Below, in pieces: positions 992-61,460 of a stretch of 64,000 nucleotides of DNA. The notes under the pieces were generated by a model. It had not been told where the DNA came from. It worked only from the letters and a program-made list of their open reading frames with translations, and ran no database searches. Source of the DNA: Xestospongia bergquistia (lineage: Eukaryota > Porifera > Demospongiae > Haplosclerida > Petrosiidae); the NCBI GenBank assembly GCA_963965975.1, contig OZ014419.1:1116001-1180000 (forward strand), given 5' to 3'. Numbering within the stretch: the first letter of the stretch is position 1; each line of letters begins with the position of its first letter. The position numbers were made by a program, and so were the translations under genes.

Positions 992-1098
992 AACAGTTGA
1001 TATTATAATATTGTTGTTTGTTTTTTAAATAAATATTAATAAACTATTATTACCTCCCACACTATGTATTAGCTAGCCACACCTGTTTATATACCAAT

Positions 1099-1108
1099 GG
1101 GAATTCCC
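1099..1108. promoter_or_regulatory. Palindromic kappa-B-type site GGGAATTCCC, copy A
   Basis: A perfect 10-bp palindrome sits 32 bp before the ATG of the first synthetase gene. It is directly preceded by a CCAAT element and, a little further up, TATATA. The block is conserved upstream of the second copy. Binding by an NF-kB protein is inferred from the consensus, not shown. The site could lie at the transcription start or in the 5' leader. Confidence 0.55.
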
Positions 1109-1140
1109 TGAACTCTTCGTTGCTCTTCTCTATCACTCTT

Positions 1141-4100
1141 ATGGATCATAGTGGTGAGGACTTGTCTGTTTTCATAGTTAATATCTGTATATACTCTCCA
1201 TTGTTTGTACAGTATCTCTATGAATTCAGTTATAGGCGAGTCTTAATAATATATGATTGATTGATTGAAGAGCCTAAACCCCAGTAATTATAGTCAGATC
1301 CTCTTGCAGAAGGGAGTGTCTGGCTATGCAAGAACTGTATTTTATGGGAATGTTGTAGCTTTAATTTTGCCCATGGTTTGTATTTATATATATATATATA
1401 CATATATATATATGATCCATCATCAATATTTGATGGATATACAAGCATTTAAGAAATGAAAGATGTTAGGATATTTTGTTGTTGTCGTGGGAGAAAGAGT
1501 AGGAATAATAAAACATTTTGTTATATTCCCCTACTAATTCATTGTTTGTTTTTTGTACAGAGCAAGACACTACAGGAGGTACTTCTTTACCAACTTCAGT
1601 GTCTGAGACACAACCAATAAAGGAAGTATCTCAAGACAGAACAGCATCAATGTCTAGTGCTATTTATGATAGCCCTATACAGGAGTCTTTATCTGGTTAG
1701 TTATTAAATATTAGTAGTTTATACAATGGAACAAATAACAGTTCAAGTATACAGTATATCCTCCATTGCACTATATGTGTAAACCATTATTGTATATCGA
1801 TTATATTATAATGTTGATAAACTGCTAATAGTAATATTGATTATTATGTTTATTAGGTCACAATGTTACTCCAAGCTTGAAGCCTAAGGAAAAGAAATCT
1901 CCTCTGAGTTCTCTAGAATTTGAACATCGTAATGTAATAGGTTCACTGTCCAAAACAAACAGTACTGGTAGTTTAAAATTTCTGAAGTTTTTACAAGAAA
2001 TTTTAAAACATTTGAACTGTGAACAAGATGAAGCTAAGTGTGTGCTAAGTCAAGCCTTTCATAATATTTTGAACTCTGATAATATATCTGAAGCTGTTCA
2101 AGTTATCTCTGAAAGTTTATTCTGTCACTACATGAATTCTGATATTCTTCATGTGTTAGCTCATGCTACAGGAAATGATACCTGTATTGAAGAAGCACGA
2201 TCTTATAAAACACGTCTGAACCAAATTTGCCAAGAAGTATGTGTAGAAGAATTTCTCGAATTTAACAAGGCACCTCAAGCCACTGAAGATACCAGTATTG
2301 TGTATGTCAAGAAAAATGAACGATGGCAGGGTTGCTGTCTTAGTATAGTGATGGATACTGTTAGGACTGTCTGCAAACTTGGAGGAATATCATCATTTTT
2401 GTGTCGAATAAAGTCTATAAGACGAGGTTCTGTTGTTATGGAATTTCTTATACCAAAATGTCTAGCTCAAGATATGATACAACATCTTTGGAGTCAAAAG
2501 GAATCATTACATGTTGATTACTCAATTGATCAACTGTTTGTTGATAATGTCAACATTGTAAATCAATTTTATGAAATGGTACAATGGTCTATTTTATTAT
2601 CATATAATGGTTTATTGTATAATAGGTTCAAAGACTTCTTGAGAAAGGACAGAGTCCAGATCAGCCACTACCTAGAACATCACAGGAAGTTCTACAACAT
2701 TTTCGTACTTATTATAATGATGCTTATGACACAAGCATATACAGCCCTAAAGAGTTTTGGCATTTTTTAGGGAGAACTTGTCTGAAATGGATTCGTGGTC
2801 CTACTGCCTGTGGATTGACTCAAGATGATTGTAAAATTATTCAAGATGACACACATATTGAATGGTTTAAAGACTGTTGGTTAAATGTCACTGGTAAATT
2901 ATAATAATTCTTGACATGTTTTTGATTTATTACTGCTTTTCTCAATAGAAAACTGTCTTGATCGTCACATTAAAACTAATGGTGATAAGATTGCTATCAT
3001 CTATAAAACTGACTTTGAAACTCAAAACATAACGTAAGAATGTCACCAGTAGTTTATTATTATACTATTATCTTCTTAAGATATAATGATCTACTGAAAC
3101 GTGTCTGTCAGATTGCTAATGTTTTGAAACGACATGGTGTCCAGAAAGGAACAAGAGTCATTATACATTTACCTACTCATCCAATGGCTATTTCTTGTAT
3201 GTTAGCTTGTGCTAGAATTGGTGCAATACACTGGTAAGTATAGTTTTATCTTTAGCTGTTTATATTTTGTGTTTTCTTCTATTAGCAATGTACCATCTAC
3301 ATCTAGTGCTACTTTACTTGCCCCAAGGATAAGAAATGGTGAACTATTTATTATATGGTGTGTTTTATAAGTTCATATTGTCTCAGCTGGTGCTGCAGTT
3401 ATCATTACTAGTAACATTACTTTGCAACATAAAACAAAGGAGATCAAAATGTTTGATAATGTGATTGAAGCTATATCCATGAGTGAAGTTAAAAAAGTCT
3501 TTGTAGCACAACTAGGTCAATCTAATTTGAGACGTCTGTCTCAAACAAATTATTCAGATTATATAGATGCCCATCTGTTAGATATTGTAAGCTATTCAAC
3601 TCTTTCTGTCTCTCCATATTCATTACCTATTACATCAATAACAGGCCATACTTGATGAGTGTTCTGACTGTCCACCTCAGCCTATGTCAGGAGAGGACGA
3701 ACTCTTTATTGCATATACATCTGGCAGTACTGGTACACCAAAGGGTCTAGTTCACACACAAGCTGGGTATCTTCTTTTTGCTACAGTTTCTTATCAAGTC
3801 AGTCTTTGGAAATTAAATATTATAAACTATTATATATACATTTAAAGATAGCATTTGATTATGAAGAGGGTGATATATCAGCATTTCTTGCTGACATGGG
3901 GTGGATAGTTTCTCATACTTACATGACTTATGGAGTTCTATCATCAGGTGGTACTACTCTACTATATAATGGCAATTTAGCAGACCATGATCTAAGTATG
4001 TACAATTCAGTAATTATTTAAATAATGTACTCTTTGATTTTTAGATTTCTTACTGTCATCAATTGTGAAAGAACACAATGTTACTCAGTTAATAATGTCA

Positions 4101-7100
4101 CCATTGTTGTTAGGTAAATTAAAATCTAAACATGAGATTGAGATCTCACAGCGTTTGCCTGAAAAACCTTCCTACCTCAAATTACTTGGCTCAGGTAATT
4201 TGCAGTAGAACTGCTACTATATTAAGTTGTGCTTTTAGTTGGTGAACATTTGCCTTCTACAACAAAATTATGGTATAAAGAGAATCTAAAAATGACAATA
4301 TTTGATCATTACTGGCAGACAGGTATTTATTTTATTGTTTTAAATAAAAATAAAGAGTTTGTTACTGATAGAAACTGGTGGTATTTTATTATCTCCTAAA
4401 TTAACAAAAGGCAATGGAACACTGACAGTTTCAGATGGAATGTATCCTTTCTTTGGAGTTCAGCCACTTTTGTTTGATGAAAAAGGAGGAGTATGTACTA
4501 TATCAAACTAATTTGTTACTTTATTATATTGTATTGTATGTAGATGAAAGAGGTACATGGAGACAATGTTCAAGGGAACCTATATTTAACCAAATCCTTA
4601 CCTGGGATGGCAAGGACTATACATGGTGATCGTGACAGATACAAGAACATTTACTGGAATGAATTCTATGGTATGGTTAACTTTTAAATCTTTTAGCTTT
4701 ATCTTTTACCTAGATTGTAATCCTTGTTTTTATACTGGTGATAGTGTATTTAGAGATGAGTTTTCATTATATCATATCAGAGGAAGAGTTGATGATGTTA
4801 TTACCATTGGAGAATATCGTTATGATCCAGCGACACTTGAAGATGTCTTGGTATGTTAATCAATTCAAAGTTAATCTAGAATGAACAGAATAGATTGTTG
4901 TGTACTTTTGTATAATAGAAAAGAAATGAACATGTTGTAAAATCAGCTTGTATTGGTTTCAGAGAGAATGACAGTTCAGGTCAGTGATGTCTGTTAATTT
5001 GAGTTTATAATTTAGTAATTGTCTGGACTCATTTAATATGTAATATAATCAAACACTATTGTTCAGTTTGAAATGTTTTATACATAGGAATTATGAGCTT
5101 TGTAGTTTTGAAGAATCGAGAACTGTCATGGAAGCAAATGGAACAAGCTCTTCATGACCTATTAACTGGACAATTTCCCAATATCAATAAATTTCCCTGC
5201 AAATTTCAAGTCAGAAATATTTGATAATAGAACAGTTTCATATTTTGTGTTGTAGTTTGTGAAAGATCTTCCCACTACAAAAAGTTCAAAAACAAGTCGA
5301 CATTATCTTAGAGAGATAACAAGAAAGGGTGGTTTCCATAAAGAAACAGATTATGACACTTTAGATGACCCACGTGTACCTAAAGACATCAGTATTCAAC
5401 TCAATGTTATCAGAGGTTTATAAATCACTTTTAACACATTTCCAATATATTATTATTAGGTGAAGGATTGGCTCATGAATCAGACAATTATAGTGACACA
5501 TATAAAGCAACTGTTGAGTTTTCTGATTTGTTTTGGAGTGGACTAGCAGACAACATACTAAAACATGAGGAGGTGAATGTCTGTGATATGAACAGTGGAC
5601 ATATTGAATGGTTTAAGGGAGAATTCCTTAATGTCACTGGTAAATAATATCTAATGGAATAGTATGGAAGCTCCTCTCTTTATAGAGCAGTGTCTTGATA
5701 AATACATTGATTATGACAATATTGCTCTGATAAGTGAAGCAGAAGAAATTACTTACAAGTAACACATTAATAATTAATAATATATCTAACCTATTTAATA
5801 AATTGTTGATCATTTTAGAAAATTATTGGAAAGAACATGCAACATTTCCAATGTTCTTGTTAATAATGGAATAAAGTCTTACTCAAAAGATCAAAAGTTC
5901 CCTGATATTATTGCTATAGTTATGTCTTTAGAAGTTACTTCAGTAGCTTGTGTTCTAGCATGTGGAAGACTTGGCTTGATCCACTGGTGAGATGATTATA
6001 TCTTAATTAGTTTGTTTTATTTTATTAACTATCAGCACAATATCTCCAATGACCAACACATCAACACTTACTCAATACCTAAATGATGGTGAGTATTTTT
6101 ATTGTATGTAGTAAGATAATTAATGGATTCTTTATGTAATCTCTTTAGTCAAACCAATTGCCATTATCACTAATTATAATTTGCTGGAAAATGTGAAGAA
6201 AGCTATGACCAAAACTGGACAAAGTATAAAATTATTTGTTACTGGTATACCACAGACTACTGAAGATATAGTGGACTTTATCAATATGGACAAGGTTAGT
6301 TTTTAAATAATGATGACATACTAATCTTTGTATCTTAGGAACTTGATCAGTACCTTAACACTGATGTTCCAGCAGTCAAAGTTCCAAGTAGACATCCACT
6401 GTTTGTCATTTTAGCTTCAGGGGACTCTGATAATCCTAAGCAAGTCATTCACTCACATGCAGGATTCCTCCTCTATTCTGCAACAACTTATAAGGTCTGC
6501 TTTACAACTCTTAAACTGTTTATTACATCAAATGATTACTTTTTATAGTATGTCTTTGATTGTGGTGTTGGTGATCGATCAATTGTTACTACAGACTTGG
6601 GTCATCCATTGACACTAGCTTACACAATTTATGGCCCACTTTACAATGGAGGTACATCAGTTCTACTAAATGGACAGTTACTGTCAAATGACCCAGGTAT
6701 TTTTATATCGATTAACTAATTCACATATGACCACATGTTTTATTATTAGCTAAATATTGGAAGCTCTTAGACTCATTTAGAGTAACTCAATTTATTACAA
6801 CATCAAATATAGTTACCAAAATGAAGCGTAAATGTAGTACTTGCCAGATTAGTAGGATCAATTCATTAAGACTCATTGCCACAGGTGAGATAATGATCAT
6901 TTATTGGGTACATGCATACTTAATTTTTAATAGCCGGAGATTACTTACAAGAAGATAATTGGGAATGGCTTTATAACAATATAGGGAAGAACTCTTGTAC
7001 TCTTGTTGATTGTTATTTTTCATCAGGTTAATTTTACTAATACTTTGTAAATATTTTAATAATTATATTACAGTTGGTGGTGCTGTTATAAGTTCTCGAC

Positions 7101-7986
7101 CATGTCAAAAGAACATAGCCTTTTCTAAAGATTGTCAAAGACCTGGTGTTCCTATGCAACCATTCTATGGAGTTGATGTACAGTTGTTTGATATCAATGT
7201 ATGTTTGTTATTAATAGTTATTAAGTAAACTGATATTTCTTTGTAGACTAAAACTAAAATTGAAGAAAATGAACAGATTGGCTTCTTATGTGTAAAACCA
7301 TTCCCAGGACTGGCTATTGGGTTGCTAGGTGATCAACCTGAAAATGGACAAACAGAGTTTTATAAAATGTATTGTAGTCTTATTCCAGGTATTCAATAAT
7401 GTTACTATGGCAACTGAGATAAATGAAATGAGACTTTCTTCTCCTTTTCAGGATATTTCTACACTGGTGATGTTGCTAGAAGGACAGCTAATGGTGACTA
7501 TAGAATTCTTGGTTCTTTCACTGACCTTCTTTATATTGATGAAAAGTATATAGCACCAATGGAGATAGAGGAAACCATTGTATGTCTGTCAGCATTTGTT
7601 GTAATTTTAATGATTATTTATATTGTTAGACAAAACATAACTCTATTGTTGAAGCAGCTGTAATACAAGATGAGACCAAGACAGGTTATACTGATCAAAG
7701 ATATAATTTACAATGTACTTATACTTTAGAAATCCATGGATTTATTGTACTTGAAAATGACAAAGTGTTGGATTCTAACTTGTTCAATGAAATCAATGCA
7801 AGAATTATAGAAAGTCATGGAGAGAAAGCTCGACTCACAAAGCGACCAGTAAGACAATCATTATTTTAATATCAGGTGTATTTCATAACAATGATGTTTT
7901 TAAAATAGAATGTACTTGAAAAATTACCCAAATCTGGTAGAGGAGATAAAGTTGACAGGACATGGCTAAAGACTATATTGCAATAA
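1141..7986 (+). CDS. Tandem acetyl-CoA-synthetase-like protein with N-terminal sponge domain, copy A
   Basis: My model has 33 exons (1141-1153, 1561-1695, 1857-2578, 2626-2893, 2949-3033, 3081-3233, 3286-3338, 3387-3586, 3645-3797, 3848-3995, 4045-4194, 4239-4322, 4372-4490, 4544-4670, 4714-4850, 4919-4979, 5088-5209, 5256-5415, then 15 more to TAA at 7986) and sums to 1,562 residues. Residues about 1-290 are a helical region resembling modules of sponge Death/NLR-type proteins (inference). Residues about 290-963 form an acetyl-CoA synthetase module with ACAS-like N-terminus, ATP loop [15 protein letters not shown] near 567, QTETGG near 720, GRVDDV near 826 and the C-terminal lysine near 922. 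Residues about 963-1562 form a second module with degenerate motifs (SGDSDNPK near 1195; SFTDLL for GRVDDV). The first probably activates a carboxylate with ATP; substrate unknown. No targeting signal was recognised. Close tandem copy at 8538. Confidence 0.85.
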
Positions 7987-8096
7987 TAACTTTATCTTTT
8001 AATGCAAATAGTAAAATTATATATAAATATTGATAATTAAATAGACTTACAAACTTTGTAGTCTTAAAAGGTTACTATAATAATTTTTATGAAAAG

Positions 8097-8155
8097 TTGA
8101 CAGTTTCTGGGTGAGGCTCAAAGAATAGAGACTAGTCCACCCACACAATCAAAAC
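8097..8155 (+). repeat. Duplicated piece of the FAAP100 5' flank
   Basis: The stretch around tgggtgaggctcaaa and gtccacccacac matches 15540-15580, just before the FAAP100-like start codon. It marks the downstream edge of the tandem duplication. The FAAP100 first exon itself is not present here. Confidence 0.6.
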
Positions 8156-8162
8156 TTATCAC

Positions 8163-8410
8163 TCCAGAAGATATTTATAACATCCTTTATCCTATAAAGT
8201 TGTATCAAAGAGACCCTCAGGTATATACGCTATAACTGATTCTCATCCTTTTATCTTAATGCATCCTTTTAGACTCTATCCTATAGCTGTGCTTACATTT
8301 AGAACGCTTACCAAAGATCTTGTCCTATGATGACAAATGCTGTGATTGTTTCTAATAATAACTATACAGGTCGTAGAATAAATAAACTGGAATTATAAAT
8401 TAGTGTAGCA
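8163..8410 (+). pseudogene. Second, more decayed P450 remnant
   Basis: A short open stretch (TPEDIYNILYPIKLYQRDPQ) ends at a donor-like gtatat near 8221. By position it could be the P450 exon before the PERW region, though that assignment is weak. About 150 bp later a frame after a tag acceptor reads GRRINKLEL, then a stop, then ISVAN, matching the post-heme segment of the remnant at 836-880. The heme Cys exon is lost. It shows that the P450 tail was part of the duplicated unit. Confidence 0.5.
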
Positions 8411-8496
8411 AATAAGCTTTATATATTAAAATTAATATTAATAAACTATTATTACCTCCCACACTATCTATTAGCCACACCTGTCTTCGTACCAAT

Positions 8497-8506
8497 GGGA
8501 ATTCCC
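8497..8506. promoter_or_regulatory. Palindromic kappa-B-type site GGGAATTCCC, copy B
   Basis: Identical 10-bp palindrome, again next to accaat and 31 bp before the ATG. The flanks (ctcccacacta; ttccctgaact) are also shared with copy A, although much of intron 1 has diverged. Confidence 0.55.
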
Positions 8507-8537
8507 TGAACTTTTTGTTGTCCTTCTCTATTATTCT

Positions 8538-11500
8538 ATGGATGCTAGAGGTGAGAACATAGCATCATTGTCTATTTTCATACTTAATATCTGTATATAT
8601 TGTCCATTTTTTTACTAATAGTAGTATGTCTATGAATTCAGTTATAGGTGGTGTGAGTGAATGTTAATAATATGTGATTGATATGGGAGCCTACACCCAC
8701 ATTAATTTAAGTCTAACATAGTTGAATCCTCGTGAAGGAGAGAACATCTGGCTATGCAAGACTTGTATTTTATGGGAATATTTTTGTAGCTTTAACTTTG
8801 TCCATGAATTGTATATATACACAATCCATCATCTATGTTTGATGGATATGCAAGCGTTTCAGTAACGAAAGATGTTAGTATATTTTGTTGTTGTGGGAGA
8901 AGGAGTAGGAATAAAGTATTTTGTTATATAGTCCTACTAATTCACTGTTTGTTTTCTGTACAGAGCAAGACACTACAGGAGGTACTTCTTTACCAACTCC
9001 AGTGTGTGAGACACAAGCAATCAAGGAAGTATCTCAAGACAGAACTACATCAATGTCTAGTGCTATTTATGATAGCCCTATACAAGTGTCTATATCTGGT
9101 TAGTTATTAAAATATTAATAGTTTATACAATGGCAGGTCTGTGTTTATCCTCCATTGCACTTTGCATGTAAACCTTAATTGTAGACTATATCTAATGTAT
9201 TACAAGTCGATGAGCTGCTGGTAGTAATATAGATTTTTGTGTTTGTTAGATCAAGAAGTTATTCCACACTTACAGCCTACAGAAAAGAAATCTCCTTTGA
9301 GTTCTCTGGAATTTGAACATCGTAATGTAATAGGTTCACTGTCCAAAACAAACAGTACTAGTAGTCTAAAATTTCAAACGTTTTTACAAGAAATTTTAAA
9401 ACATTTGAATTGTGAACAAGATGAAGCTAAGTGTGTGCTAAGTCAAGCCTTTCATAATATTTTAATCTCTGATAATATATCTGAAGCTGTTCAAGTTATC
9501 TCTGAAAGTTTATTCTGTCACTACATGAATTCTGATATTCTTCATGTGTTAGCTCATGCTACAGGAAATGATAACTGTATTGAAGAAGCACGATCTTATA
9601 AAACACGTCTGAACCAAATTTGCCAAGAAGTATGTGTAGAAGAATTTCTCGAATTTAACAAGGCACCTCAAGCCACTGAAGATACCAGTATTGTGTATGT
9701 CAAGAAGAATGAACAATGGCAGCATTGCAGTCTTAGTACAGTGATGGATACTGTTAGGACTGTCTGCAAACTTGGAGGAGTACCACCATTTTTGTGTCGT
9801 ATAAAGTCTATCAAACGAGGCTCTGTTGCTGTGGAATTTCTTATACCAAAACGTCTTGCTCAAGATATGATACAACATCTTTCAAGTCAAAAGGAATCAT
9901 TACATGTTGATCACTCAATTGATCAACTGTTCATTGATAATGTCAACATTGTAAATCAATTTTATGATAAGGTACAATGGTCTATTTTATTATCTTGTAA
10001 TGGTTTATTGTATAATAGGTTCAAAAACTTCTTGAGAAAGGACAAAGTCCAGATCAGCCACTACCTAGAACATCACAGGAAGTTCTACAACATTTTCGTA
10101 CTTATTATAATGATGCTTATGACACAAGTATATACAACCCTAAAGAGTTTTGGCATTTTTTAGGGAAAAAATGTCTGAAATGGATTCGTGGTCCTACTGC
10201 CTGTGGATTGACTCATGATGATCATAATATTATTCAAGATGACATGCATATTGAATGGTTTAAAGACTGTTGGTTAAATGTCACTGGTAAATTATAATAA
10301 TTCTTGACATGTTTTTGATTTATTACTACTTTTCTCAATAGAAAACTGTCTTGATCGTCACATTAAAACTAATGGTGATAAGATTGCTATCATCTATAAA
10401 ACTGACTTTGAAACTCAAAAAATAACGTAAGAATGTCACCAGTAGTTTATATTAAAATTATTGTACTATTATCTTCTTAAGATATAATGATCTACTGAAA
10501 CGCGTCTGTCAGATTGCTAATGTTTTGAAACGACATGGTGTCCAGAAAGGAACAAGAGTCATTATACATTTACCTACTCATCCAATGGCTATTTCTTGTA
10601 TGTTAGCTTGTGCTAGAATTGGTGCAATACACTGGTAAGTATAGTTTTATCTTTAGCTGTTTATATTTTGTGTTTTCTTCTATTAGCAATGTACCATCTA
10701 CATCTAGTGCTACTTTACTTGCTCCAAGGATAAGAGATGGTGAGTTATTTATTATATGGTGTGTTTTATAAGTTCATATTGTCTCTTTCAGCTGGTGCTG
10801 CAGTTGTCATTACTAGTAGCATTACTTTGCAACACAAAACAAAGGAGATCAAAATGTTTGATAATGTGATTGAAGCTATAGCCATGAGTGAATGCAATGA
10901 AGTTAAAAAAGTCTTTGTAGCACAATTAGGTCAATCTAATATGAAATGCCTACCTCAAACAGATACTCCAGATAATATAGATGCCCACTTGTTAGATACT
11001 GTAAGCTATTCAACAATCTCTGTCTCTCCATATTCATTACCTATTATATCAATAACAGGCCATACTTGATGAATGTTCTGATTGTCCACCTCAGCCCATG
11101 TCAGGAGAGGATGATCTCTTTATCACATATACATCTGGCAGTACTGGTACACCAAAGGGTCTAGTTCACACACAAGCTGGGTATCTTCTTCATGCTACAG
11201 TTTCTTACCAGGTTGGCATTTGAAAATATAATGTTATAATCTAATATTCTTGTATATATATATATATATATATATATTTGAAGATTGCATTTGATTATGA
11301 AGAGGGAGATATATCAGCATTTCTTGCTGACATAAGTTGGATAGTATCTCATAGTTATATGACTTATGGAGTTCTATCATCTGGTGGTACTACTCTACTA
11401 TATAATGGAAAATTAGAAGACCATGATCTAAGTATGTACAGTTAGTAATTATTTAGATAATGTACTTGATTTTTTTCTTTCAGATTCACTACTGTCAATT

Positions 11501-14500
11501 GTTGAAGAACAAAAAATTACTCAGTTAATTATGTCACCGTTGGTGTTAAATAACTTAAAATCTAACCAGAGCTTGCAGTCTTTACCTAAAAAACCTTCCT
11601 GCCTCAAGTTACTTGGCTCAGGTATTTCAAAGTAGAACTGTAACTCAACTGTTACATATAACACACTTATGTTTTTAGCTGGTGAGTGTTTGCCTTCATC
11701 TACAAAGAAGTGGTATAAAGAGAATCTAGGTGTGACAATATTTGATAGCTATGGGCAGACAGGTATATTTGCTTTTTGGTTCCTAGCTGTATCTACTGAT
11801 ATTAATTTTAGAAACCGGAGGTTTATCGTTATCTCCTAAATTAACAAAAGACAATGGAACACTGACAGTTTCAGATGGAATGTATCCTTTCTTTGGAGTT
11901 CAGCCAGTTTTGTTTGATGAAAAAGGAGGAGTATGTACTATATCAAACTAATTTGTTACTTTATTGTATTGTATGTAGATGAAAGAGGTACATGGAGACA
12001 ATGTTCAAGGGAACCTATATTTAACCAAACCCTTACCTGGGATGGCAAGGACTATATATGGTGATCATGACAGATACAAGAACACTTACTGGAATGAAGT
12101 CTATGGTATAGTTAACTTTTAAATCTCTTAACTTTATCTTTTACCTAGATGGTAATCCTTGTTTTTATACTGGTGATAGTGTATTTAGAGATGAGTTTTC
12201 ATCATATCATATCAGAGGAAGAGTTGATGATGTTATTACTGTTGGACAATATCGTTATGACCCAATCAGACTTGAAGATGTCTTGGTATGTTAATCAAAG
12301 TTAATCTAGAATGAACAAAATGAATTGTTATGTACTTTTCTATAATAGAAAAGAAATGAACATGTTGTAAAATCAGCTTGTATTGGTTTCAGAGAGAATG
12401 ACAGTTCAGGTCAGTGATGTCTATCATTTGAGTTTGTAATACAGTGATTGTCTGGACTCATTTAATATGTAATATAATCAAACACTATTGTTCAGTTTGA
12501 AATGTTTTATACATAGGAATTATGAGCTTTGTAGTTTTGAAGAATCGAGAACTGTCATGGAAGCAAATGGAACAAGCTCTTCATGACCTATTAACTGGAC
12601 AATTTCCCAATATCAATAAATTTCCCTGCAAATTTCAAGTCAGAAATATTTGATAATAGAACAGTTTCATATTTTGTGTTGTAGTTTGTGAAAGATCTTC
12701 CCACTACAAAAAGTTCAAAAACAAGTCGACATTATCTTAGAGAGATAACAAGAAAGGGTGGTTTCCATAAAGAAACAGATTATGACACTTTAGATGACCC
12801 ACGTGTACCTAAAGACATCAGTATTCAATTCAATGTTATCAGAGGTTTATAAAATCACTTTTAATACACTTCTAAATTCAAATATATTATTATTAGGTGA
12901 AGGATTGGCTCATGAATCAGACAATTATAGTGACACATACAAAGCAACAGTTGAGTTTTCTGATTTGTTTTGGAGTGGACTAGCAGACAACATACTAAAA
13001 CATGAGGAGGTGAATGTCTGTGATATGAACAGTGGACATATTGATTGGTTTAAGGAAGGATTCCTTAATGTCACTGGTAAATAATATCTAATGGAATAGT
13101 ATGGAAGTTCCTTCCTTTATAGAGCAGTGCCTTGATAAGCACATTGATTATGACAAGATTGCTCTGATAAGTGAAGCAGAAGAAATTACTTACAAGTAAC
13201 ACATTAATAATTAATAATATATATAATCTATTTAATAAATTGTTGATCATTTTAGAAAATTACTGGAAAGAACATGCAACATTTCCAATGTTCTTGTTAA
13301 TAATGGAATAAAGTCTTACTCTAAAGAACAAGAGTTCCCTGATATTATTGTTATAGTTATGTCATTAGAAGTTACTTCAGTAGCTTGTGTTCTAGCATGT
13401 GGAAGACTTGGCTTGATCCACTGGTAAGATTATATCTTAATTAGTTTGTTTTATTTTATTAACTATTAGTACAATATCTCCAATGACCAACTTGTTGACA
13501 CTTACTCAATACCTAAATGATGGTGAGTATTTTTATTGTATGTAGTAAGATAATTAATGGATTCTTTCTGTAATCTCTTTAGTCAAACCAATTGCCATTA
13601 TCACTAATTATAATTTGCTGGAAAATGTGAAGAAAGCTATGACCAAAACTGGACAAAGTATTAAATTATTTGTTACTGGTATACCACAGACTACTGAAGA
13701 TATATTGGACTTTATCAATATGGACAAGGTTAGGTTTTAAATAACGATGACCTACTAATCTTTGTATCTTAGGAACTTGATCAGTACCTTAATACTGATT
13801 TTCCAGCAGTCAAAGTTCCAAGTAGACATCCACTGTTTGTCATTTTAGCTGCAGGAGACTCTGATAATCCTAAGAGAGTCATTCACTCACATGCAGGATT
13901 CCTCCTCTATTCTTCAACAACTTACAAGGTCTGCTTTACAACTCTTAAACTGTTTACATCAAATGATTACTTTATAGTATGTGTTTGATTGTGATGTTGG
14001 TGATCGATCAGTTGTTACTACAGACTTGGGTCATCCATTGACACTAGCTTACACAATTTATGGCTCACTTTGCAATGGATGCACATCAGTTCTACTAAAT
14101 GGACAGTTAATGTCAAATGACCCAGGTATTTAATACTGTTAATTATTTCACATATGACCACATGTTTTATTATTAGATAAATATTGGGAGATTTTAAGTT
14201 CCTTTAGAGTAACTCAATTTATTACAACATCAAATATGGTTACCCAAATGAAGCATAAATGTAGTACTTGCCAGATTAGTAGGATCCAGTCATTAAGACT
14301 CATTGCCACAGGTGAGATAATGATCATTTATTGGGTACATGCATACTAAATTTTTAATAGCTGGAGATTACTTACAAGAAGACAATTGGGAATGGCTTTA
14401 TAACAATGTAGGGAAGAACTCTTGTACTCTTGTTGATTGTTATTTTTCATCAGGTTAATTTTACTAATACTTTGTAGATATTTTAATAATTATTTTACAG

Positions 14501-15427
14501 TTGGTGGTGCTGTTATAAGTTCTCGACCATGTCAAAAGAATGTTGCCTTTTCTAAAGATTGTCAAAGACCTGGTGTTCCCATGCAACCATTCTATGGAGT
14601 TGATGTACAGTTGTTTGATATCAATGTATGTTTGTTATTAATTGTTATTAAGTAAACTGATATTTCTTTGTAGACTAAAACTAAAATTGAAGAAAATGAA
14701 CAGATTGGCTTCTTATGTGTAAAACCATTCCCAGGACTGGCTATTGGGTTGCTAGGTGATCAACCTGAAAATGGACAAACAGAGTTTTACAGGATATATT
14801 GTAGTCTTATTCCAGGTATTCAATAATGTTACTATGGCAACTGAGATAAATGAAATGAGACTTTCTTCTCCTTTTCAGGATATTTCTACACTGGTGATGT
14901 TGCTAGAAGGACAGCTAATGGTGACTATAGAATTCTTGGTTTTTTCACAGACCTTCTTTATATTGATGGAGAGTATATAGCACCAATGGAGATAGAGGAA
15001 ACCATTGTATGTTTGTCAGCATTTGTTGTAATTTTAATGATTATTTATATTGTTAGACAAAACATAATTCTATTGTTGAAGCAGCTGTAATACAAGATGA
15101 GACCAAGACAGGTTATATTGATCAAAGATATAATATTATAATTTACAGTGTACTTATTATGTTTTAGAAATCCATGGATTTATTGTACTTGAAGAGAACA
15201 AAGTGTTGGACTCTAACTTGTTCAGTGAAATCAATGCAAGAATTACAGAAAGTCATGGAGAGAGAGCTCGACTCACAAAGCGACCAGTAAGACAATCATT
15301 ATTTTAATATCAGGTGTATTTCATAACAATAATGTTATTTTCACAGAATGTACTTGAAAAACTACCCAAATCTGGTAGAGGAGATAAAGTAGACAGGACA
15401 TGGCTAAAGAACTTTTTGCAGAAATAA
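8538..15427 (+). CDS. Tandem acetyl-CoA-synthetase-like protein, copy B
   Basis: The structure matches copy A: a 13-nt first coding exon (8538-8550), then 8964-9098, 9250-9971, 10019-10286 and so on to TAA at 15425-15427. No in-frame stop or broken splice site was noticed, though I did not sum every exon. Module 1 keeps [27 protein letters not shown] and the C-terminal lysine context TKSSKTSR. Its A5 region reads SYGQTETGG rather than HYWQTETGG, which may alter the acyl pocket. Module 2 is again degenerate (AGDSDNPKR in the ATP loop). Two extra codons lie in exon 8 (ECNE against E). Exons 16-18 and their introns are almost identical to copy A, suggesting gene conversion. Both copies look functional, and they have likely diverged in substrate or expression. 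Confidence 0.8.
11249..11276. repeat. (TA)n microsatellite
   Basis: A TA dinucleotide run in the intron before exon 10 of synthetase copy B; it is absent from the same intron of copy A. Similar short runs occur near 1383-1410 and 21660-21677. Confidence 0.8.
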
Positions 15428-15584
15428 GTTCATCTTCTAATGCAAATGATATAATTATAGATATTAATATACATAATTAAAGGAGTTACAAACATTTTAG
15501 TTTTGAAAGGTTGATTGTTTTATGCAAAGCTGGTAATTTCTGGGTGGGGGTCAAACTAAGGACTGCTCCACCCACACATCAAGC

Positions 15585-18623: not shown

Positions 18624-18775
18624 AGCAGTTGCCTATCAAATCTTGTTTGTTACACATGATGTAATATGACACCTTGAAAGTATGTGTAGTATTGTTAGGC
18701 AACAAAACACTTCTTGTTTTGTCACATGCAGGGGTAATTCTACTCTTTAATCACATTATATAAACAGAGAAAATT

Positions 18776-20362
18776 ATGCCAAACTATGAATTTTGTTATC
18801 AAACTCAGCATTATTTAAATAGCAATATGGCCTTCATTGGTTCTCGACTCTCTCTTGCTCTTCAATTTTTAAAACCAGTAAGATATGCCTCTAGTGTTGT
18901 TATAACTGATGACCCATCTTCACAAGCTGTTTGGTTATCAGCTAAACCATTCAAAGCTATGCCTGGTCCAAAATCTGAACCATTTATTGGTATTTTTAGA
19001 GATATGAAAAAAAATGACTGCAGTGATTTTTCAGCTGAGAAGAGGTATTTTGTAACTCTATTTGAACGATTTGGTCCTACTGTGAGAGTCAGTAACCCTT
19101 CATATTTTGGAGGCTCAGCAGTACATACGTGTGATCCTCAAGTCTTCAGACTCATGCTGAGAAATGAGCCCAAGTATCCTTCACGACTATCAACAATGGA
19201 AAAAAATATGAAATGGATTCATGAAAAAATGAAAGTTCCAATGTTCATGTTTTTTACTGCAGGACATGAATGGAAAAAGCTCCGATCAGCTATGGCTAAA
19301 CCTATTGTCCCTCGTAGAGTAGCCATGTTTACTCCATCATTGTACGCTGTAGGTGATGAGCTGGGAAGTCATTGGATCAGTAAGGGAAATAAAGAGAATG
19401 TTACTATCAATGATATTAGAGATGATTTGCAAAAATGGGCTCTCAAGGGTGTGATATGGTTTATATACAATGAAAATATGAACGTTTTTTCTGATGGTGC
19501 ATCTAGATTTACTGAAGCGGCAGTAGAATTTTTTGAGTCTGTAGCAAAAATTAATATGGCCCCTCCTCTTTACAAGATATTCCTTACAGAGCCTTATAAA
19601 CATTATGTTAATACTGTCACTAAAATGCACACTCTTGGCAAGGAGATCATGAAGACACGTTTTGAGGAACTCCAGAAATTAGCACAGGAAGAGGGAGAGA
19701 TTGATGAAATGAAAATTAGTGTAATGGAGCAACTTATGATTGAAGGGAAAATCACAGAACAAGAGGCCTTGTCACAGAGCTGTGACTTATTAGCAGCTGG
19801 TGTTGACACAACTTCAACCACTGCTGCTTTTCTACTTCATGAAGTAGCCAAGCGACCAGATATTCAACAAGCTTTATTTGAACAAATATCAAATGTTTGT
19901 GGTGAGAAAAAAGTACCTGACTTTGATGATTTGCAAAAATTGTCACTAGTGAGAAATTGTGTTAAAGAAACTTTACGTCTGCATCCAGTAATCCCAATGC
20001 TGTTTCGTACTGCTGAAAGTGATATGGTAATTCACGGCTATCAGGTCCCTAGAAATACAACTGTGTTTTTCAATCAAGTAGTTTTGACTAAAGATTCCAG
20101 TATTCACTCAAATCCTGAAACCTTTGACCCATATCGATGGGACAAACCCCAGGATGAAACAACTCTCTTTGGATCAATCCCATTTGGGTTTGGTCTTCGT
20201 ATGTGTTATGGTCGTCGACTAGCTGAACTAGAGCTCCACCTTCTTCTAACAAATATGATTCGTCGTTTCATTCTTGAAACAGATCAACCTACAGTCCATT
20301 CTGTGCAATTTAGCATCGTTAAACCAGGAGAGCCTGTACGACTTCAACTTAAAAAGCGCTAA
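18776..20362 (+). CDS. Mitochondrial-type cytochrome P450, intronless
   Basis: One uninterrupted 528-codon frame. Proline-rich hinge MPGPKSEP lies near 62; the I-helix oxygen-binding AGVDTT is at 341-346, ExxR at 398-401 (ETLR), and heme loop FGFGLRMCYGRR has its Cys at 477. The GRRLAELELHLLL helix after the heme loop is typical of the mitochondrial clan (CYP11/24/27 type), which takes electrons from adrenodoxin. The second Met (18827) starts MAFIGSRLSLALQFLKP, a better amphipathic presequence, so translation may begin there. Substrate cannot be told. It begins about 150 bp after FAAP100 and ends 126 bp from the convergent cullin gene. The lack of introns is odd in this intron-rich locus; the P450 remnant at 697 has one in the heme region, so retroposition is possible. 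Confidence 0.92.
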   Translation: MPNYEFCYQTQHYLNSNMAFIGSRLSLALQFLKPVRYASSVVITDDPSSQAVWLSAKPFKAMPGPKSEPFIGIFRDMKKNDCSDFSAEKRYFVTLFERFGPTVRVSNPSYFGGSAVHTCDPQVFRLMLRNEPKYPSRLSTMEKNMKWIHEKMKVPMFMFFTAGHEWKKLRSAMAKPIVPRRVAMFTPSLYAVGDELGSHWISKGNKENVTINDIRDDLQKWALKGVIWFIYNENMNVFSDGASRFTEAAVEFFESVAKINMAPPLYKIFLTEPYKHYVNTVTKMHTLGKEIMKTRFEELQKLAQEEGEIDEMKISVMEQLMIEGKITEQEALSQSCDLLAAGVDTTSTTAAFLLHEVAKRPDIQQALFEQISNVCGEKKVPDFDDLQKLSLVRNCVKETLRLHPVIPMLFRTAESDMVIHGYQVPRNTTVFFNQVVLTKDSSIHSNPETFDPYRWDKPQDETTLFGSIPFGFGLRMCYGRRLAELELHLLLTNMIRRFILETDQPTVHSVQFSIVKPGEPVRLQLKKR

Positions 20363-20488: not shown

Positions 20489-25869
<5,381 letters not shown>

Positions 25870-41100: not shown

Positions 41101-41434
41101 CCTGTCGAGAAAGGTGAGAGAATTTATAAGGAGATCAGGTCGATCGAATCTCTTGTAAACTCACGAATCGCCACCAGTTTACAACAGGCAATTTGTATTG
41201 CTGTTGTGGAAGGTAAGTTAGCGTGGACTAAGTAAAGATTCATGGGACAGTTTATAAGGTAGATCTTGTAGACACTTTGCTCAACAACCACTCGTATTTG
41301 TTTGCATGTAGTAATTTGCCAGTGGGATTTAGTCTGTCACTAGACACAGCCATCTATATATACTCATATGATCTACTACAAAAAAGAAAATTATTTTAAT
41401 ACTTTATATAAAAGTTGATAAAAACATCTTTCAG

Positions 41435-42920
41435 TTTCAGAGTCAAACAGAAACCACAAATCAATATGACAAAGTACGACAGAGACCCTGAGTTTAAAAG
41501 GACTCCTATCTCAGACGATTATGAAATAAGATGGAGTCGTAATCTTGGTACGGGAGTGAGTGGACCTGTAAGATTATGTATCCATCGAGCTACAGGCAAA
41601 GAGTACGCTCTCAAGATACTTCTTGATCGTAAAAAGGCTGAGATTGAAGCTACCCTTCACTGGCGATGTAGTGGTGGAGATCATATTGTGAGGATCGTCG
41701 ATGTGTATCGTAATGAAATTAAGCAGCCAGGAGAGATCAGTGCCAAGAAAAGGATTCTATTAGTTATGGAATTAATGGAAGGGGCTGAGCTCTTTGAATT
41801 TATTTCCAAACGGCATCACTTCACTGAACGAGAAGCAAGTAAATATGTGTTTCAAATTTCCAAGGGAGTTCAATTTTGTCACCGTCTCAATATAGCTCAT
41901 CGAGACATCAAACCTGAGAATCTTCTCCTCCTTATTAAGACAACTGACCCTGAGAATGTTAATATAAAACTTTCTGACTTTGGATTTGCTAAAGTCGATA
42001 ATGGAGATCTCAAAACACCACAGTTCACTCCATATTATGTTGCTCCTCAAGTCCTAGAAGCCCAAAAACGGCAGAAAGAGATTCAGTCTGGTTATAAACC
42101 ACGAAGTCCTTATTATTATGACAAGAGTTGTGACGTATGGTCCGTGGGTGTTATCATGTACATCATGTTGTGTGGTTATCCACCATTTTACTCGGAGGTA
42201 CCTCATCAGTCCTTGAGTAATCGAATGAAACAAAAAATAATGAGTGCTGATTTCGATTTTCCAGAGAACGACTGGAAGACGATAACTTCTGATGCTAAAG
42301 ATCTTATTAAGAAAATGCTTTGTGTTGAGCCGAGTGAGCGTCTTTCTATTGATGAAGTTCTACGACATCCTTGGATTGCTCAAAATATGTCACCCAATTC
42401 TGATCTCAACTCACCTCTTCTCATTTCTGACAAAGACACGCTGAACGAAGTTCAAGGCACTCATGCTGAGTTTCTTCAGAATTTACGTCGAGACGATTCT
42501 GGTTTCTTCTTGAAACCTATTGGACTCGCCAAAAATCCTGTGCTGGAAGCTCGGAAAAAGAAGCAGACTACCACTGCATTGGAAGATAATGAGTCATTTG
42601 GAGTAGTGGACCCTAACGAAGCTCTTCAGAGTATTAAAGCCCTTATTGATGCTTGTCAAATGCCTCCTCCACTGTTTGCTATGTCCACTGAAAGTCTTCC
42701 CGATCCTTCTTTTAACGAAAGCGTCAAGAGGGCTTTAACTCTGAATGAAAACAATACTGCTTTATTAGAAGCATTGGAGCAAGAATCATGGAACGGGGTT
42801 GAGTTTGGTGGCCTCGTTAATCGTAAAAGATTGGCCAAATCTCTCGAAGATATCGTTGACTCGTCTCAAATGGATGTGCTCACACCTAATGTAACTGTTA
42901 CTGAAGTTTCTACCTGTTAA
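41435..42920 (+). CDS. MAPKAPK5: MAPKAPK5 (PRAK) protein kinase
   Basis: The coding region is a single exon; the likely start is ATG at 41466 (484 residues; human 473), because atctttcag at 41426-41434 is a good acceptor for a leader intron (possible 5' exon ending at 41212, gtaagt donor). The kinase domain has GTGVSGPV (Gly-loop), ALKILLD, HRDIKPEN (145-152) and DFGFAK (from 171). The activation loop LKTPQFTPYYVAPQVLEAQ keeps the Thr that p38 or ERK3/4 phosphorylates in PRAK (T184 here). The C-terminal part keeps NPVLEARKKK, matching the PRAK nuclear-localisation/docking region, and SWNGVEFGG. It is a stress-responsive Ser/Thr kinase. The insertless T-loop and the C-terminal homology separate it from MAPKAPK2/3. 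Confidence 0.93.
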
Positions 42921-46667: not shown

Positions 46668-49600
46668 ACTCACTCAAAGGAGTGTCTTACCTGAACAAGG
46701 AAGACTAGAGGGACAACAAGATCAAGATGACAGTCTAAACATATTATCAGTATCTCTCCCTTCACTCACCTCTCAATTACCTAGTTCTTCCACCGGCATA
46801 TTTTTGACCCCACCATCACTTCCTCTCCCTCATCGTCCTTCTCTTGTACCTCAAACACTGTACCAATCAGTACAACAACTCAGAAGTGACCTAGTTACTT
46901 TAAAAAATGAACATCAACAGAAAATGGCACAACTTCAAATGGAGCTGAGCATGACTAAACACAGAATAAAAACAGCTATACAAGGTTCATTAGTACCAGT
47001 ACTACAACTATTATATATCTGTTTTCTTTCTGGCTATACATAGGTGTATCAATGGACCCTGTTCCATCATTTCGTCAAGAGAGGATGGCTATTACACCAC
47101 TTAAAGAGGAGTACATAAGAAAATCTGAGACCATTTTAAAAGAAATAAGGTGCACAATATAAATCTATGTTGAAAAATTCTATGTTATATTTTCTCTTAT
47201 ATTATTGTCATTTGTTTATGTGTCTGTCTATCCCTGTCTATATTAATGTACTATTTCTATTTCAGAGTATTACAGAGTATAGGAGAAGGTCTTAGAGTTG
47301 ATGCTGTTAATCGTCATTGTAAAATCAATTCCGAAGAAGTCAACACATTACTTTCTATAGTCAATGAATCAACTGCAACACTCACTACTTTAAAAGGTAA
47401 GTAAAGTTGCTTTTTATGTAATGTTGATGTCAACTTATCTATAGGTCAGTTTGGGCCATTAGAACAGAAACTAAAAACTATCATGAAAGATGAACTACAA
47501 GTTATTGTGACTGAAGAAAGGTCAGAACACTACCAGTAATAATAATACATGATTTTAATGTACTCATATAAACTGTAGGTTGATAGAAGAGGAGGCTGAA
47601 AAACTTGAGAAGGCTGATGAATCATGTCGAAATCTTGTCAATACTCTAAATGCACTACAACAGTAAGCTCTTATACTGCAATATAGCAATCATGTTGAAA
47701 TCTTGTCAATACTCTAAATGCACTACAACAGTAAGCTCTTATACTGCAATATAGCAATCATGTTGAAATCTTGTCAATACTCTAAATGCACTACAACAGT
47801 AAGCTCTTATACTGCAATATAGCAATCATGTTGAAATCTTGTCAATACTCTAAATGCACTACAACAGTAAGCTCTTATACTGCAATATAGCAATCATGTC
47901 GAAATCTTGTCAATACTCTAAATGCACTACAACAGTAAGCTCTTATACTGCAATATAGCAATCATGTCGAAATCTTGTCAATACTCTAAATGCACTACAA
48001 CAGTAAGCTCTTATACTGCTATATAGCAATCATGTCGAAATCTTGTCAATACTCTAAATGCACTACAACAGTAAGCTCTTATACTGCAATATAGCAATCA
48101 TGTCGAAATCTTGTCAATACTCTAAATGCACTACAACAGTAAGCTCTTATACTGCTATATAGCAATCATGTCGAAATCTTGTCAATACTCTAAATGCACT
48201 ACAACAGTAAGCTCTTATACTGCAATATAGCAATCATGTCGAAATCTTGTCAATACTCTAAATGCACTACAACAGTAAGCTCTTATACTGCTATATAGCA
48301 ATCATGTCGAAATCTTGTCAATACTCTAAATGCACTACAACAGTAAGCTCTTATACTGCAATATAGCAATCATGTCGAAATCTTGTCAATACTCTAAATG
48401 CACTACAACAGTAAGCTCTTATAATGCAATATAGCAATCATGTCGAAATCTTGTCAATACTCTAAATGCACTACAACAGTAAGCTCTTATACTGCTATAT
48501 AGCAATCATGTCGAAATCTTGTCAATACTCTAAATGCACTACAACAGTAAGCTCTTATACTGCTATATAGCAATCATGTTGAAATCTTGTCAATACTATA
48601 AATGCACTACAACAGTAAGCTCTTATACTGCTATATAGCAATCATGTCGAAATCTTGTCAATACTCTAAATGCACTACAACAGTAAGCTCTTATACTGCA
48701 ATATAGCAAAATTTGGCAAAGGGATTTTGTTGACAAATTCATTCCATTCATAACAATTATCCCAACCCAACAAGTACAGCTGTTTGGGAATATTTATTTT
48801 GCCAAATTTTCTTTTCCTCTATGCATGCAGTGTACTGATTTTTATTATGTTGTAGGTTATCACTGCTCCAGTCTCAAAGGTCACCACACATTCCCATCTT
48901 CTCTACAGTAGATGATGAATCCAACAGATTTGCTCTGATACAGAGCATCAATGCTATCTCTCCTGATCACTTAAAGCGAATGGAATCCATTGAAATGGCT
49001 GAAACTGTCATCGAGAAGAAGAAACAGTTCAGTCCAACTGTAAGAGCACTGAGGAAATTTGAATCAGCTTTACAAAAAGGTCACGATCAGCTCAAACCAT
49101 CAGGGAATGACTTGATGACTTTAGATAGAGATATAGAAGTGAAAACAAAGACATTGTACATGGATGAAAAACTCGAGCGGCAAAAACAAATTGAAAAAGA
49201 AATTGCATTAGCTGAAAGACTTCTCAATGAAAAGAGACAGAAGGAGTTTGCTGAAGTTGAACAACGTTTACAAACTGTAAGTGCAATACACAAAAGCAAA
49301 GAACAAGACCAAATGAGGCAATTGGATGAAGAGAGGAGACATTTGGATGAAGAAAGACAAAGGCAGGAACAAGAGAGACAGAGATTGAATGAACTACGAC
49401 GACAACAGGAACAAGAGCACTATAGGTTGAGAGATGAGAAAAGGAGACAAGAGGAAGAGAAACGGCAACTTGAGTTTGAAAAACATCAACAAGAAATAGC
49501 TAAAAAGAAAATCGAAGAAGACCGTAAAAAGTGGGAAGAGTTTCACTCAAAATTAGACAGCGATAGCCCCGATGTTAGGGCAAGACGTAAAGAGTTGCTA

Positions 49601-55300: not shown

Positions 55301-55497
55301 CAAAGTGGTTAATGATCCCTTCCTAGGTGACAAAGAAAAGATAGAATTCTTAGCAAAGAGAGTAAGTGAACTTGAGGGAAAGGTAAGTCAACCAGTCTAG
55401 AATCAACATATAAATATCATGTTAATAGATGGAGGAAAAAAAGAAACAAGAAATTGTACAAAATAAAGAATCTGAGACTTCAATTACCACCTTATAA
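50706..55497 (+). CDS. GABA-B-like class C G-protein-coupled receptor 1
   Basis: Seventeen exons (50706-50966, 51052-51189, 51254-51424, 52713-52817, 52878-52943, 52989-53177, 53229-53358, 53403-53566, 53611-53683, 53737-53841, 53891-54032, 54078-54204, 54245-54352, 54448-54594, 54653-54976, 55179-55382, 55429-55497) sum to 840 residues. A signal peptide is followed by a Venus-flytrap ligand domain (GFITSFGNTYNSSGTVPAVQ; IVGSGCS; KQYNWRYIAIINQEENVF). No Cys-rich spacer follows, as in GABA-B receptors. Seven membrane segments lie in exons 11-15 (TEIVSVALPITVIYTLLAV first; SVLFATSILIMATVILSLVF last), with LGYSLCFGTILAKMWRVYYI as TM3. The cytosolic tail has a short coiled coil (KEKIEFLAKRVSELEGK). 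Ligand unknown. Intron 3 (1,288 bp) has a TA run at 52266-52300. Confidence 0.88.
51425..52712. other. Long intron 3 of receptor 1
   Basis: AT-rich intron, far longer than the gene's other introns. It contains (TA)n at 52266-52300. It does not resemble the same intron of receptors 2 and 3, so it was replaced or diverged freely. No exon recognised. Confidence 0.5.
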
Positions 55498-55720
55498 TTA
55501 GAATTATATGTTTGTTAGTTTTTCCAATATTTTTTTAATAATTATTGTTGTTTCTTTATCTATCCTTTTAATTTTCTAATTTATTTCTCAAAATGATTTA
55601 CCAACATGTCTGCCTTCCTTTCTTTATTGTACATATATTCTTAGATTATGTGTCCAAAGAAAAAATCTCTCCAATGGTATGCATTAACTGAAGTGTCTAG
55701 AATACAGGTAATCGAATGCC

Positions 55721-55799
55721 ATACTTTAATGTGAAATTAATACATTTAGGTTCCAATGTTTAGGGTCTAGGGTATAGTATTAATTTCACATTAAAGTAT
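55721..55799. repeat. Perfect 22-bp inverted repeat
   Basis: Arms 55721-55742 (atactttaatgtgaaattaa plus ta) and 55778-55799 are exact reverse complements with a 35-bp loop. They lie in the 456-bp spacer between receptors 1 and 2. It may be a MITE relic or a transcript-end hairpin. Confidence 0.85.
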
Positions 55800-55953
55800 A
55801 GGATTGTAGTACTAGCAGTTATAGTCGATTAATTTTAAATATATTTGCATAAATAACCTATTCTTAACAAAATTCACTTAATAACAGTCTACGTATCTAT
55901 AGTGTTCGTTTTGCCGCCTCTTTTTTCGACATCCAAACAACTAGAAAATATTA

Positions 55954-61455: not shown

Positions 61456-61460
61456 TCAAC

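What the first reader, a model, noticed from the sequence alone, without database searches (positions are those of the whole stretch)
1141..15427. Duplicated genes fusing a sponge-specific N-terminal region to two synthetase modules
Each gene joins about 290 residues of helical sequence, reminiscent of modules in sponge Death/NLR-type proteins, to two acetyl-CoA-synthetase-like modules in one chain. I know of no described animal acyl-CoA synthetase with this layout. Both copies keep open frames over 33 exons; for copy A the exons sum to an exact 1,563 codons. The fusion suggests a metabolite-activating enzyme controlled by, or feeding, a sensing system.
Basis: partly seen in the sequence, partly recalled or inferred. 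Interest (0 to 1): 0.85.

Follow-up and report, generated by a model that had tools for sequence, protein, structure and literature searches.

The report
Duplicated double acetyl-CoA synthetase fusion genes
Two neighbouring copies of a many-exon gene each join an unnamed front domain to one acetyl-CoA-synthetase unit that looks able to activate its substrate and one that looks dead; the copies differ at the residue that sets which acid fits, an unusual arrangement of a well-known enzyme family.

Summary
Both genes rebuild as 33 exons, all introns GT-AG, 1,562 residues plus stop, about 90% identical. Each encodes a front region of about 290 residues and two acetyl-CoA-synthetase (ACS) modules. 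The front region has no significant family or PDB match, so 'sponge-specific' and 'Death/NLR-type' are unsupported; part of it is predicted, at low confidence, alpha/beta.

New: (1) the modules arose by internal duplication: 14 of 14 introns agree in order and phase. (2) Module 1 keeps the adenylation residues but has changed CoA-side positions; module 2 has lost essential residues yet is under purifying selection. (3) The acyl-pocket 'Trp wall' is Trp in copy A, Gly in copy B, a change reported to widen ACS substrate range (PMC8383264). (4) A perfect kappa-B palindrome lies just upstream of both start codons: one ancestral site, noticed post hoc.

Best reading: an acyl-activating enzyme with a built-in dead partner, duplicated and diverging in substrate, perhaps NF-kappa-B-regulated. 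New variant of a known kind.

The parts
1141..7986 (+). Gene A: 33 exons, 1,562 residues plus stop
8538..15427 (+). Gene B: 33 exons, 1,562 residues plus stop; identical to A at 1410 of 1566 alignment columns
1857..2578 (+). Exon 3 of A: about residues 50-290, the front region; helical first half, second half (window 2213-2578, residues 169-290) predicted beta-alpha-beta-beta-alpha-beta
   Evidence: pLDDT 44.9; pLDDT 56.0; no significant family match
9250..9971 (+). Exon 3 of B: same front region
2626..5415 (+). Module 1 of A (exons 4-18): ACAS_N, AMP-binding, AMP-binding_C; adenylation residues retained
10019..12844 (+). Module 1 of B (exons 4-18)
   Evidence: by alignment to A
5460..7986 (+). 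Module 2 of A (exons 19-33): degenerate ACS module; 14 of 14 introns match module 1 in order and phase
12897..15427 (+). Module 2 of B (exons 19-33): degenerate ACS module
   Evidence: by alignment to A
4313..4315 (+). TGG codon, Trp719 of A: acyl-pocket 'Trp wall' (S. enterica Acs W414 position) kept
   Evidence: alignment; coordinates read
11753..11755 (+). GGG codon, Gly718 of B: same position, Gly
   Evidence: alignment; coordinates read
4045..4322 (+). Exons 11-12 of A: with the 13-base exon 1 (0.77), the exons least alike between copies (0.77 and 0.76); exon 12 holds the acyl-pocket motif
4919..5415 (+). Exons 16-18 of A: near-identical to B (1.00, 1.00, 0.994), possibly gene conversion
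1099..1108 (.). GGGAATTCCC palindrome (kappa-B site sequence); 32 bases lie between it and the start codon of A
8497..8506 (.). GGGAATTCCC palindrome (kappa-B site sequence); 31 bases lie between it and the start codon of B

Best explanation
Two recent tandem duplicates of a divergent acetyl-CoA-synthetase gene. An older internal duplication of a 15-exon ACS unit gave each protein an ACS module that looks adenylation-competent (module 1) and a degenerate one (module 2), both behind an unnamed front domain carried mainly on one exon. Inferred mechanism: module 1 binds ATP and a short carboxylic acid and forms acyl-AMP, then probably acyl-CoA, although its CoA side is altered. Module 2 does not catalyse but is kept as a structural or allosteric partner. 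The front domain localises or regulates the enzyme. After duplication the copies split substrate range: A keeps the acetate-size Trp wall, B opens the pocket with Gly. Transcription may be under NF-kappa-B. Shown from sequence: gene structure, shared introns, residue losses, dN/dS below 1, the W/G difference and the kappa-B sequence. Inferred: catalysis, substrate, regulation by module 2 and the front domain, NF-kappa-B control.
For: Gene models open in both copies. ACS domain order and best PDB match 5jrh at 1.8e-98 for module 1 of A. 14 of 14 intron phases identical, 12 of 14 positions within 2 alignment columns, 8 exact; 0 of 20,000 random placements reached 12, largest 7. Module 1 of both copies keeps the TSGSTG P-loop, W309, E388, D411, Q415, T416, E417, D500, R515, R526 and K609 (S. 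enterica numbering); module 2 lacks W309, E417, R515, R526 and the P-loop consensus. dN/dS 0.51 for module 1 and 0.38 for module 2; Fisher p 8e-4 and 2.8e-5. Trp-to-Gly at the wall widens an archaeal ACS to longer acids (PMC8383264 passages), and acyl-adenylate subfamilies using larger substrates have Gly there (PMC3098103 passages).
Against: No cDNA or protein evidence. Both modules of A score below the curated ACS cutoff (467.3 and 307.1 against 724.95 bits, TIGR02188). Changed CoA-side positions in module 1 (R191Q, R194K, A357S, G524E or Q, R584T) cast doubt on the thioester step. Module 2 still has D411, D500 and, with a one-residue gap, the catalytic Lys, so its deadness is inferred. The W/G site lies in a divergent patch (exons 11-12), so other pocket changes accompany it. 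The front-region selection signal is weak (dN/dS 0.52, p 0.057). dN/dS between two copies can reflect constraint on one copy only and is blurred by conversion.
Confidence: 0.55

Rival explanations
1. An ordinary metabolic ACS paralogue family: the degenerate module is a stability or dimerisation relic and the front region a localisation tag, with no sensing role; the copies are a recent gene-dosage duplication.
For: ACS modules are the only recognisable domains; copies about 90% identical with near-identical patches; no signalling domain found.
Against: Divergence from canonical ACS is large (module 1 about 34% identical to the bacterial and 33-34% to the two fungal enzymes, which with the bacterial one are 52-62% identical to each other). 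The W/G change alters a known specificity residue. The front region is open in both copies.
Confidence: 0.25
2. An acyl-adenylate enzyme that no longer makes acyl-CoA: module 1 adenylates an acid and passes the acyl group (or acyl-AMP itself) to another acceptor, for example a protein lysine or a signalling target.
For: Adenylation residues kept while R191, A357, G524 and R584 are changed and R194 is Lys.
Against: R526 and the catalytic Lys are kept; the two fungal enzymes also have Lys at the R194 position. The CoA roles of R191, R194, A357, G524 and R584 are recalled, not from a call.
Confidence: 0.12
3. Separate or decaying transcription units: the model joins neighbouring genes, or one copy is an early pseudogene.
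For: No cDNA; the automatic model missed or shortened exons.
Against: The 44-base (A) or 52-base (B) intron between modules 1 and 2 leaves little room for a terminator plus promoter; both copies have the same 33 open exons and dN/dS below 1.
Confidence: 0.08

Closest known systems
AMP-forming acetyl-CoA synthetase (AcsA / ACSS; Pfam ACAS_N, AMP-binding, AMP-binding_C; PDB 5jrh, 1pg3/1pg4, 5ifi)
   Same: Same domain order; module 1 aligns over nearly its whole length and keeps the adenylation residues.
   Different: Two modules in one chain, the second degenerate; extra front region; below the curated ACS cutoffs; altered CoA-side residues; Gly instead of the Trp wall in copy B.
Acyl-CoA synthetases for longer acids, with Gly at the acyl-pocket position
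   Same: Copy B has the Gly that these subfamilies share (PMC3098103 passages).
   Different: The rest of module 1 is ACS-like: for module 1 of A the best NCBIfam models are acetate-CoA ligases; module 1 of B is 89.7% identical to it.
Sponge NLR / Death-domain receptors
   Different: No NACHT, LRR, Death or CARD match in the whole of protein A, scanned in three overlapping pieces, or in exon 3 pieces; PMC12909245 (passages) describes NACHT-LRR receptors with CARD or Death, and the term AMP-binding does not occur in its main text.
ACT and PII-like regulatory domains
   Same: The low-confidence model of front residues 169-290 has strand-helix-strand-strand-helix-strand order; best Foldseek match an aspartokinase ACT domain, E 3.4e-3.
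   Different: No match at E 0.001 or better, model pLDDT 56.0, about 15% identity: a fold-level hint only.

Membership tests
AMP-forming acetyl-CoA synthetase | ACAS_N + AMP-binding + AMP-binding_C order | tested here: met
   Copy A: module 1 all three above Pfam cutoffs; module 2 same order, ACAS_N below cutoff. Copy B by alignment only
AMP-forming acetyl-CoA synthetase | Curated equivalog score (TIGR02188, 724.95 bits) | tested here: not met
   467.3 (module 1 of A), 307.1 (module 2 of A); B not scanned
AMP-forming acetyl-CoA synthetase | Adenylation residues: P-loop, QTE, D500, R515, K609 | tested here: met
   Module 1 of both copies; module 2 does not meet this
AMP-forming acetyl-CoA synthetase | CoA-side residues R191, R194, A357, G524, R584 | tested here: not met
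   Q, K, S, E (A) or Q (B), T in module 1; functional roles recalled
AMP-forming acetyl-CoA synthetase | Trp wall limiting the acyl pocket | tested here: inconclusive
   Met in copy A (W719), not met in copy B (G718)
AMP-forming acetyl-CoA synthetase | Acetyl-CoA formation | not testable with these tools
   Needs enzyme assay
Pseudoenzyme (module 2) | Recognisable family member with loss of catalytic residues, kept by selection | tested here: met
   AMP-binding E 7e-37; E417, R515, R526 and P-loop consensus lost, D411 and D500 kept; dN/dS 0.38, p 2.8e-5. Loss of activity itself needs an assay
NLR / Death-fold protein | NACHT, LRR, Death, CARD or DED domain | tested here: not met
   None among Pfam matches up to E 10 in protein A or exon 3 pieces (only DUF2755, SMC_hinge and Clathrin_H_link, all below cutoff). 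A strongly diverged Death fold could be missed
NF-kappa-B target gene | kappa-B site near the start | tested here: met
   GGGAATTCCC at 1099 and 8497, the only two in 64 kb; expected 0.013-0.017
NF-kappa-B target gene | Binding and induction | not testable with these tools
   Needs EMSA or ChIP and expression data

The most novel reading that the evidence does not exclude
An NF-kappa-B-inducible metabolite effector of early animal immunity: a regulatory front domain and a pseudo-synthetase partner gate an acyl-adenylating module that has drifted from its CoA role, with tandem copies tuned to different (possibly microbe-derived) short-chain acids.
Probability: 0.1. Interest if true: 0.85.

Novelty: new variant of a known kind. 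Interest (0 to 1): 0.5.

Why it matters
The ACS enzymes I know of are single-module metabolic enzymes (recalled). A gene that fuses an ACS module to a degenerate sister module made by exon-for-exon duplication, adds an unknown front domain and then splits its acyl pocket between tandem copies would be a natural case of pseudoenzyme partnering and substrate divergence. The kappa-B palindrome, if functional, would link short-chain acid activation to immune signalling in an early animal and gives a direct bench test.

Tried and rejected
Tried without result: the whole genome of the window (none held); relatives of exon 3 of A in viral contigs (3 stretches matched a pattern, 0 confirmed) and genome contigs (16 stretches, 0 confirmed); sequence searches of the front region (Pfam best E 0.099 and 0.033, all below cutoff; PDB best E 0.85; PADLOC 0 families up to E 1; PHROGs best E 0.093); structure of exon 3 alone (pLDDT 44.9) and its Foldseek search (0 matches at E 0.001 or better, not interpreted); Rfam on the window (0 matches at gathering score). 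Ten literature searches; six aimed at the architecture, whose listings show no description of it: 1, 0, 1, 0, 10 and 0 papers listed, of which I opened only PMC12909245 (passages).

Considered and rejected: two unrelated synthetases fused (14 of 14 shared introns); gene-prediction artefact (two copies with the same 33-exon structure; they are recent duplicates, so not fully independent evidence); front region as a Death or CARD domain (no match). A retained intron 31 in copy A (45 bases, read through by the automatic model) was rejected because the copy B intron is 56 bases and must be spliced to keep the frame. The kappa-B count is one ancestral site seen twice and noticed post hoc among many possible motifs; with the looser consensus (recalled) GGGRNWYYCC there are 4 matches, the same two places on both strands, against a shuffle mean of 1.21, and 5 of 100 shuffles reach 4. 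The FastTree result grouping modules 1 and 2 (support 0.999) uses only three outside sequences and long branches and is given little weight.

Full report
Observation. The window (64 kb, 29-37% GC in 2-kb steps) holds two tandem genes on the + strand. A codon-usage and splice-site gene finder gave 29 exons for copy A and 31 for B. In A it missed exons 12, 26, 27 and 33 (it put a different last exon at 8104-8235) and read through intron 31; in B it missed exons 20 and 27; several exon ends were shifted in both. I completed these by reading the copies against each other. The final models have 33 exons each, 32 of 32 GT-AG introns, and 1,562 residues plus stop in both copies. The proteins are identical at 1410 of 1566 alignment columns. 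The duplicated block is 1024-8152 against 8426-15582, 90.5% identical over 7,260 columns. The start codon rests on a 4-codon first exon; the next Met is residue 35 in both copies.

Domains. These scans used copy A. Module 1 (exons 4-18) carries ACAS_N, AMP-binding (2.1e-60) and AMP-binding_C. Module 2 (exons 19-33) carries AMP-binding (7e-37) and AMP-binding_C, with ACAS_N below cutoff. Best PDB matches are acetyl-CoA synthetases: 5jrh 1.8e-98 for module 1 and 5ifi 1.1e-61 for module 2. The best NCBIfam models are acetate-CoA ligases, but both modules fall far below the curated cutoffs (467.3 and 307.1 against 724.95 bits for TIGR02188). They are diverged relatives of ACS. The modules of copy B are 89.7% and 92.8% identical to those of A.

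Origin of the two modules. When modules 1 and 2 are aligned, all 14 introns within the modules of A pair one to one in order with the same phase. Eight are at the same column, 12 within 2 columns, and two differ by 9 columns. In 20,000 random placements none reached 12 within 2 columns (largest 7). The chance of the same 14 phases by shuffling is 1 in 72,072. The second module therefore most likely arose by duplication of an intron-bearing 15-exon unit. Protein identity between modules 1 and 2 of A is 168 of 574 aligned positions, so the event is old. I could not compare introns with a housekeeping ACS gene of the same animal.

Active site. Against the S. enterica enzyme (rows copied) and two fungal enzymes (rows), module 1 of both copies keeps the TSGSTG P-loop, W309, E388, D411, Q415, T416, E417, D500, R515, D517, R526 and K609. 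CoA-side positions differ: R191 to Q, R194 to K (also K in the fungal rows), A357 to S, G524 to E in A and Q in B, R584 to T. That these five positions serve CoA is recalled from the ACS structural literature; a search for it listed nothing. T311 is Val in both copies, P389 is His (A) or Cys (B), and V386 is Val (A) or Ala (B). Module 2 has H for W309, D for E388, a gap at E417, S or F for R515, T for D517, Y for R526, and a broken P-loop (SGDSDNPK in A, AGDSDNPK in B); it keeps D411 and D500, and its catalytic Lys is matched only by placing a one-residue gap. Module 2 is unlikely to form an adenylate, though only an assay can show that.

Trp wall. The residue that caps the acyl pocket (W414 in S. 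enterica numbering; Trp439 in Cryptococcus Acs1 and Trp416 in the archaeal enzyme) is Trp719 in A and Gly718 in B. Passages of PMC8383264 say that this Trp limits the pocket to acetate and that Trp-to-Gly in the archaeal enzyme admitted alkyl groups of up to seven carbons and branched acids. Passages of PMC3098103 say that subfamilies using larger substrates have a conserved Gly there. The codons are TGG at 4313-4315 and GGG at 11753-11755. The site lies in exon 12. Exons 11 and 12 and the 13-base exon 1 are the least alike between the copies (0.773, 0.762, 0.769), and introns 9, 11 and 12 are at 0.57, 0.63 and 0.57, whereas exons 16-18 are almost identical (1.00, 1.00, 0.994). This pattern suggests conversion or exchange among copies, so the pocket region may carry an older history.

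Selection. Nei-Gojobori dN/dS between copies is 0.47 overall, 0.88 for residues 1-49, 0.52 for exon 3, 0.51 for module 1 and 0.38 for module 2. Fisher tests give p 0.057, 8e-4 and 2.8e-5 for exon 3, module 1 and module 2. The degenerate module 2 is conserved at least as well as module 1. The signal for the front region is not significant at 0.05.

Front region. Nearly all of it is one exon (exon 3, 722 bases). It has no significant match in Pfam, PDB sequences, PADLOC or PHROGs, and no relative was confirmed among viral or prokaryotic contigs, where none would be expected. AlphaFold on exon 3 of A alone is poor (pLDDT 44.9). Its second half, with both copies aligned, gives pLDDT 56.0 and strand-helix-strand-strand-helix-strand. 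The top Foldseek matches are aspartokinase ACT domains (E 3.4e-3), with PII-like proteins among the first 50; none reaches E 0.001. I take this only as a hint of a ferredoxin-like, possibly regulatory domain. I recall similar stretches in sponge and cnidarian receptor-like proteins, but no call tests that.

Promoter. GGGAATTCCC occurs exactly twice in the 64 kb, at 1099-1108 and 8497-8506, with 32 and 31 bases between it and the two start codons. It was found in 0 of 100 shuffles, and the expected number is 0.013-0.017. The looser consensus GGGRNWYYCC (recalled) hits only these two places, each read on both strands (4 matches; shuffle mean 1.21; 5 of 100 shuffles reach 4). The stretch around it is identical at 110 of 133 columns, so this is one ancestral site kept in both copies. 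It is the palindromic kappa-B probe used for protist NF-kappa-B proteins (PMC8677719 passages), and the sponge Amphimedon queenslandica has an NF-kappa-B (PMC13042239 passages). It was noticed post hoc and is a lead.

Verdict. The gene pair is well supported and the layout is unusual. It is best described as a divergent ACS with an internal pseudo-ACS partner and an unnamed front domain, duplicated in tandem with substrate-pocket divergence. It is inferred to work like an ACS in its adenylation half, but it does not meet the curated family thresholds. The sensing role is open.

Noticed in passing
710-787: Fragment resembling the heme-binding end of a cytochrome P450 (50% identity over 26 columns to the P450 ORF at 18767-20359, E 0.056), upstream of gene A. 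The adjoining stretch 789-878 recurs upstream of B at 8321-8413 (81% over 95 columns).
   Followed up: partly
18767-20359: Cytochrome P450 ORF without introns (Pfam p450 4e-73).
   Followed up: no
41430-42917: Protein kinase ORF without introns (Pkinase 4.7e-63), resembling MAPK-activated kinases by recall.
   Followed up: no
47620-48709: 68-base tandem repeat, 16.0 copies, 98% matches.
   Followed up: no
24154-24473: 45-base tandem repeat, 7.1 copies, inside a 151-codon minus-strand ORF (24126-24581) that reads as a repeated 15-residue unit.
   Followed up: no
52691-64000: Large tandem duplicates (52691-54986 with 57784-60075 at 96.8% identity, and a further partial copy at 63112-63997) around weak ANF_receptor and 7tm_3 matches below Pfam cutoffs: perhaps a class C receptor cluster.
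   Followed up: no
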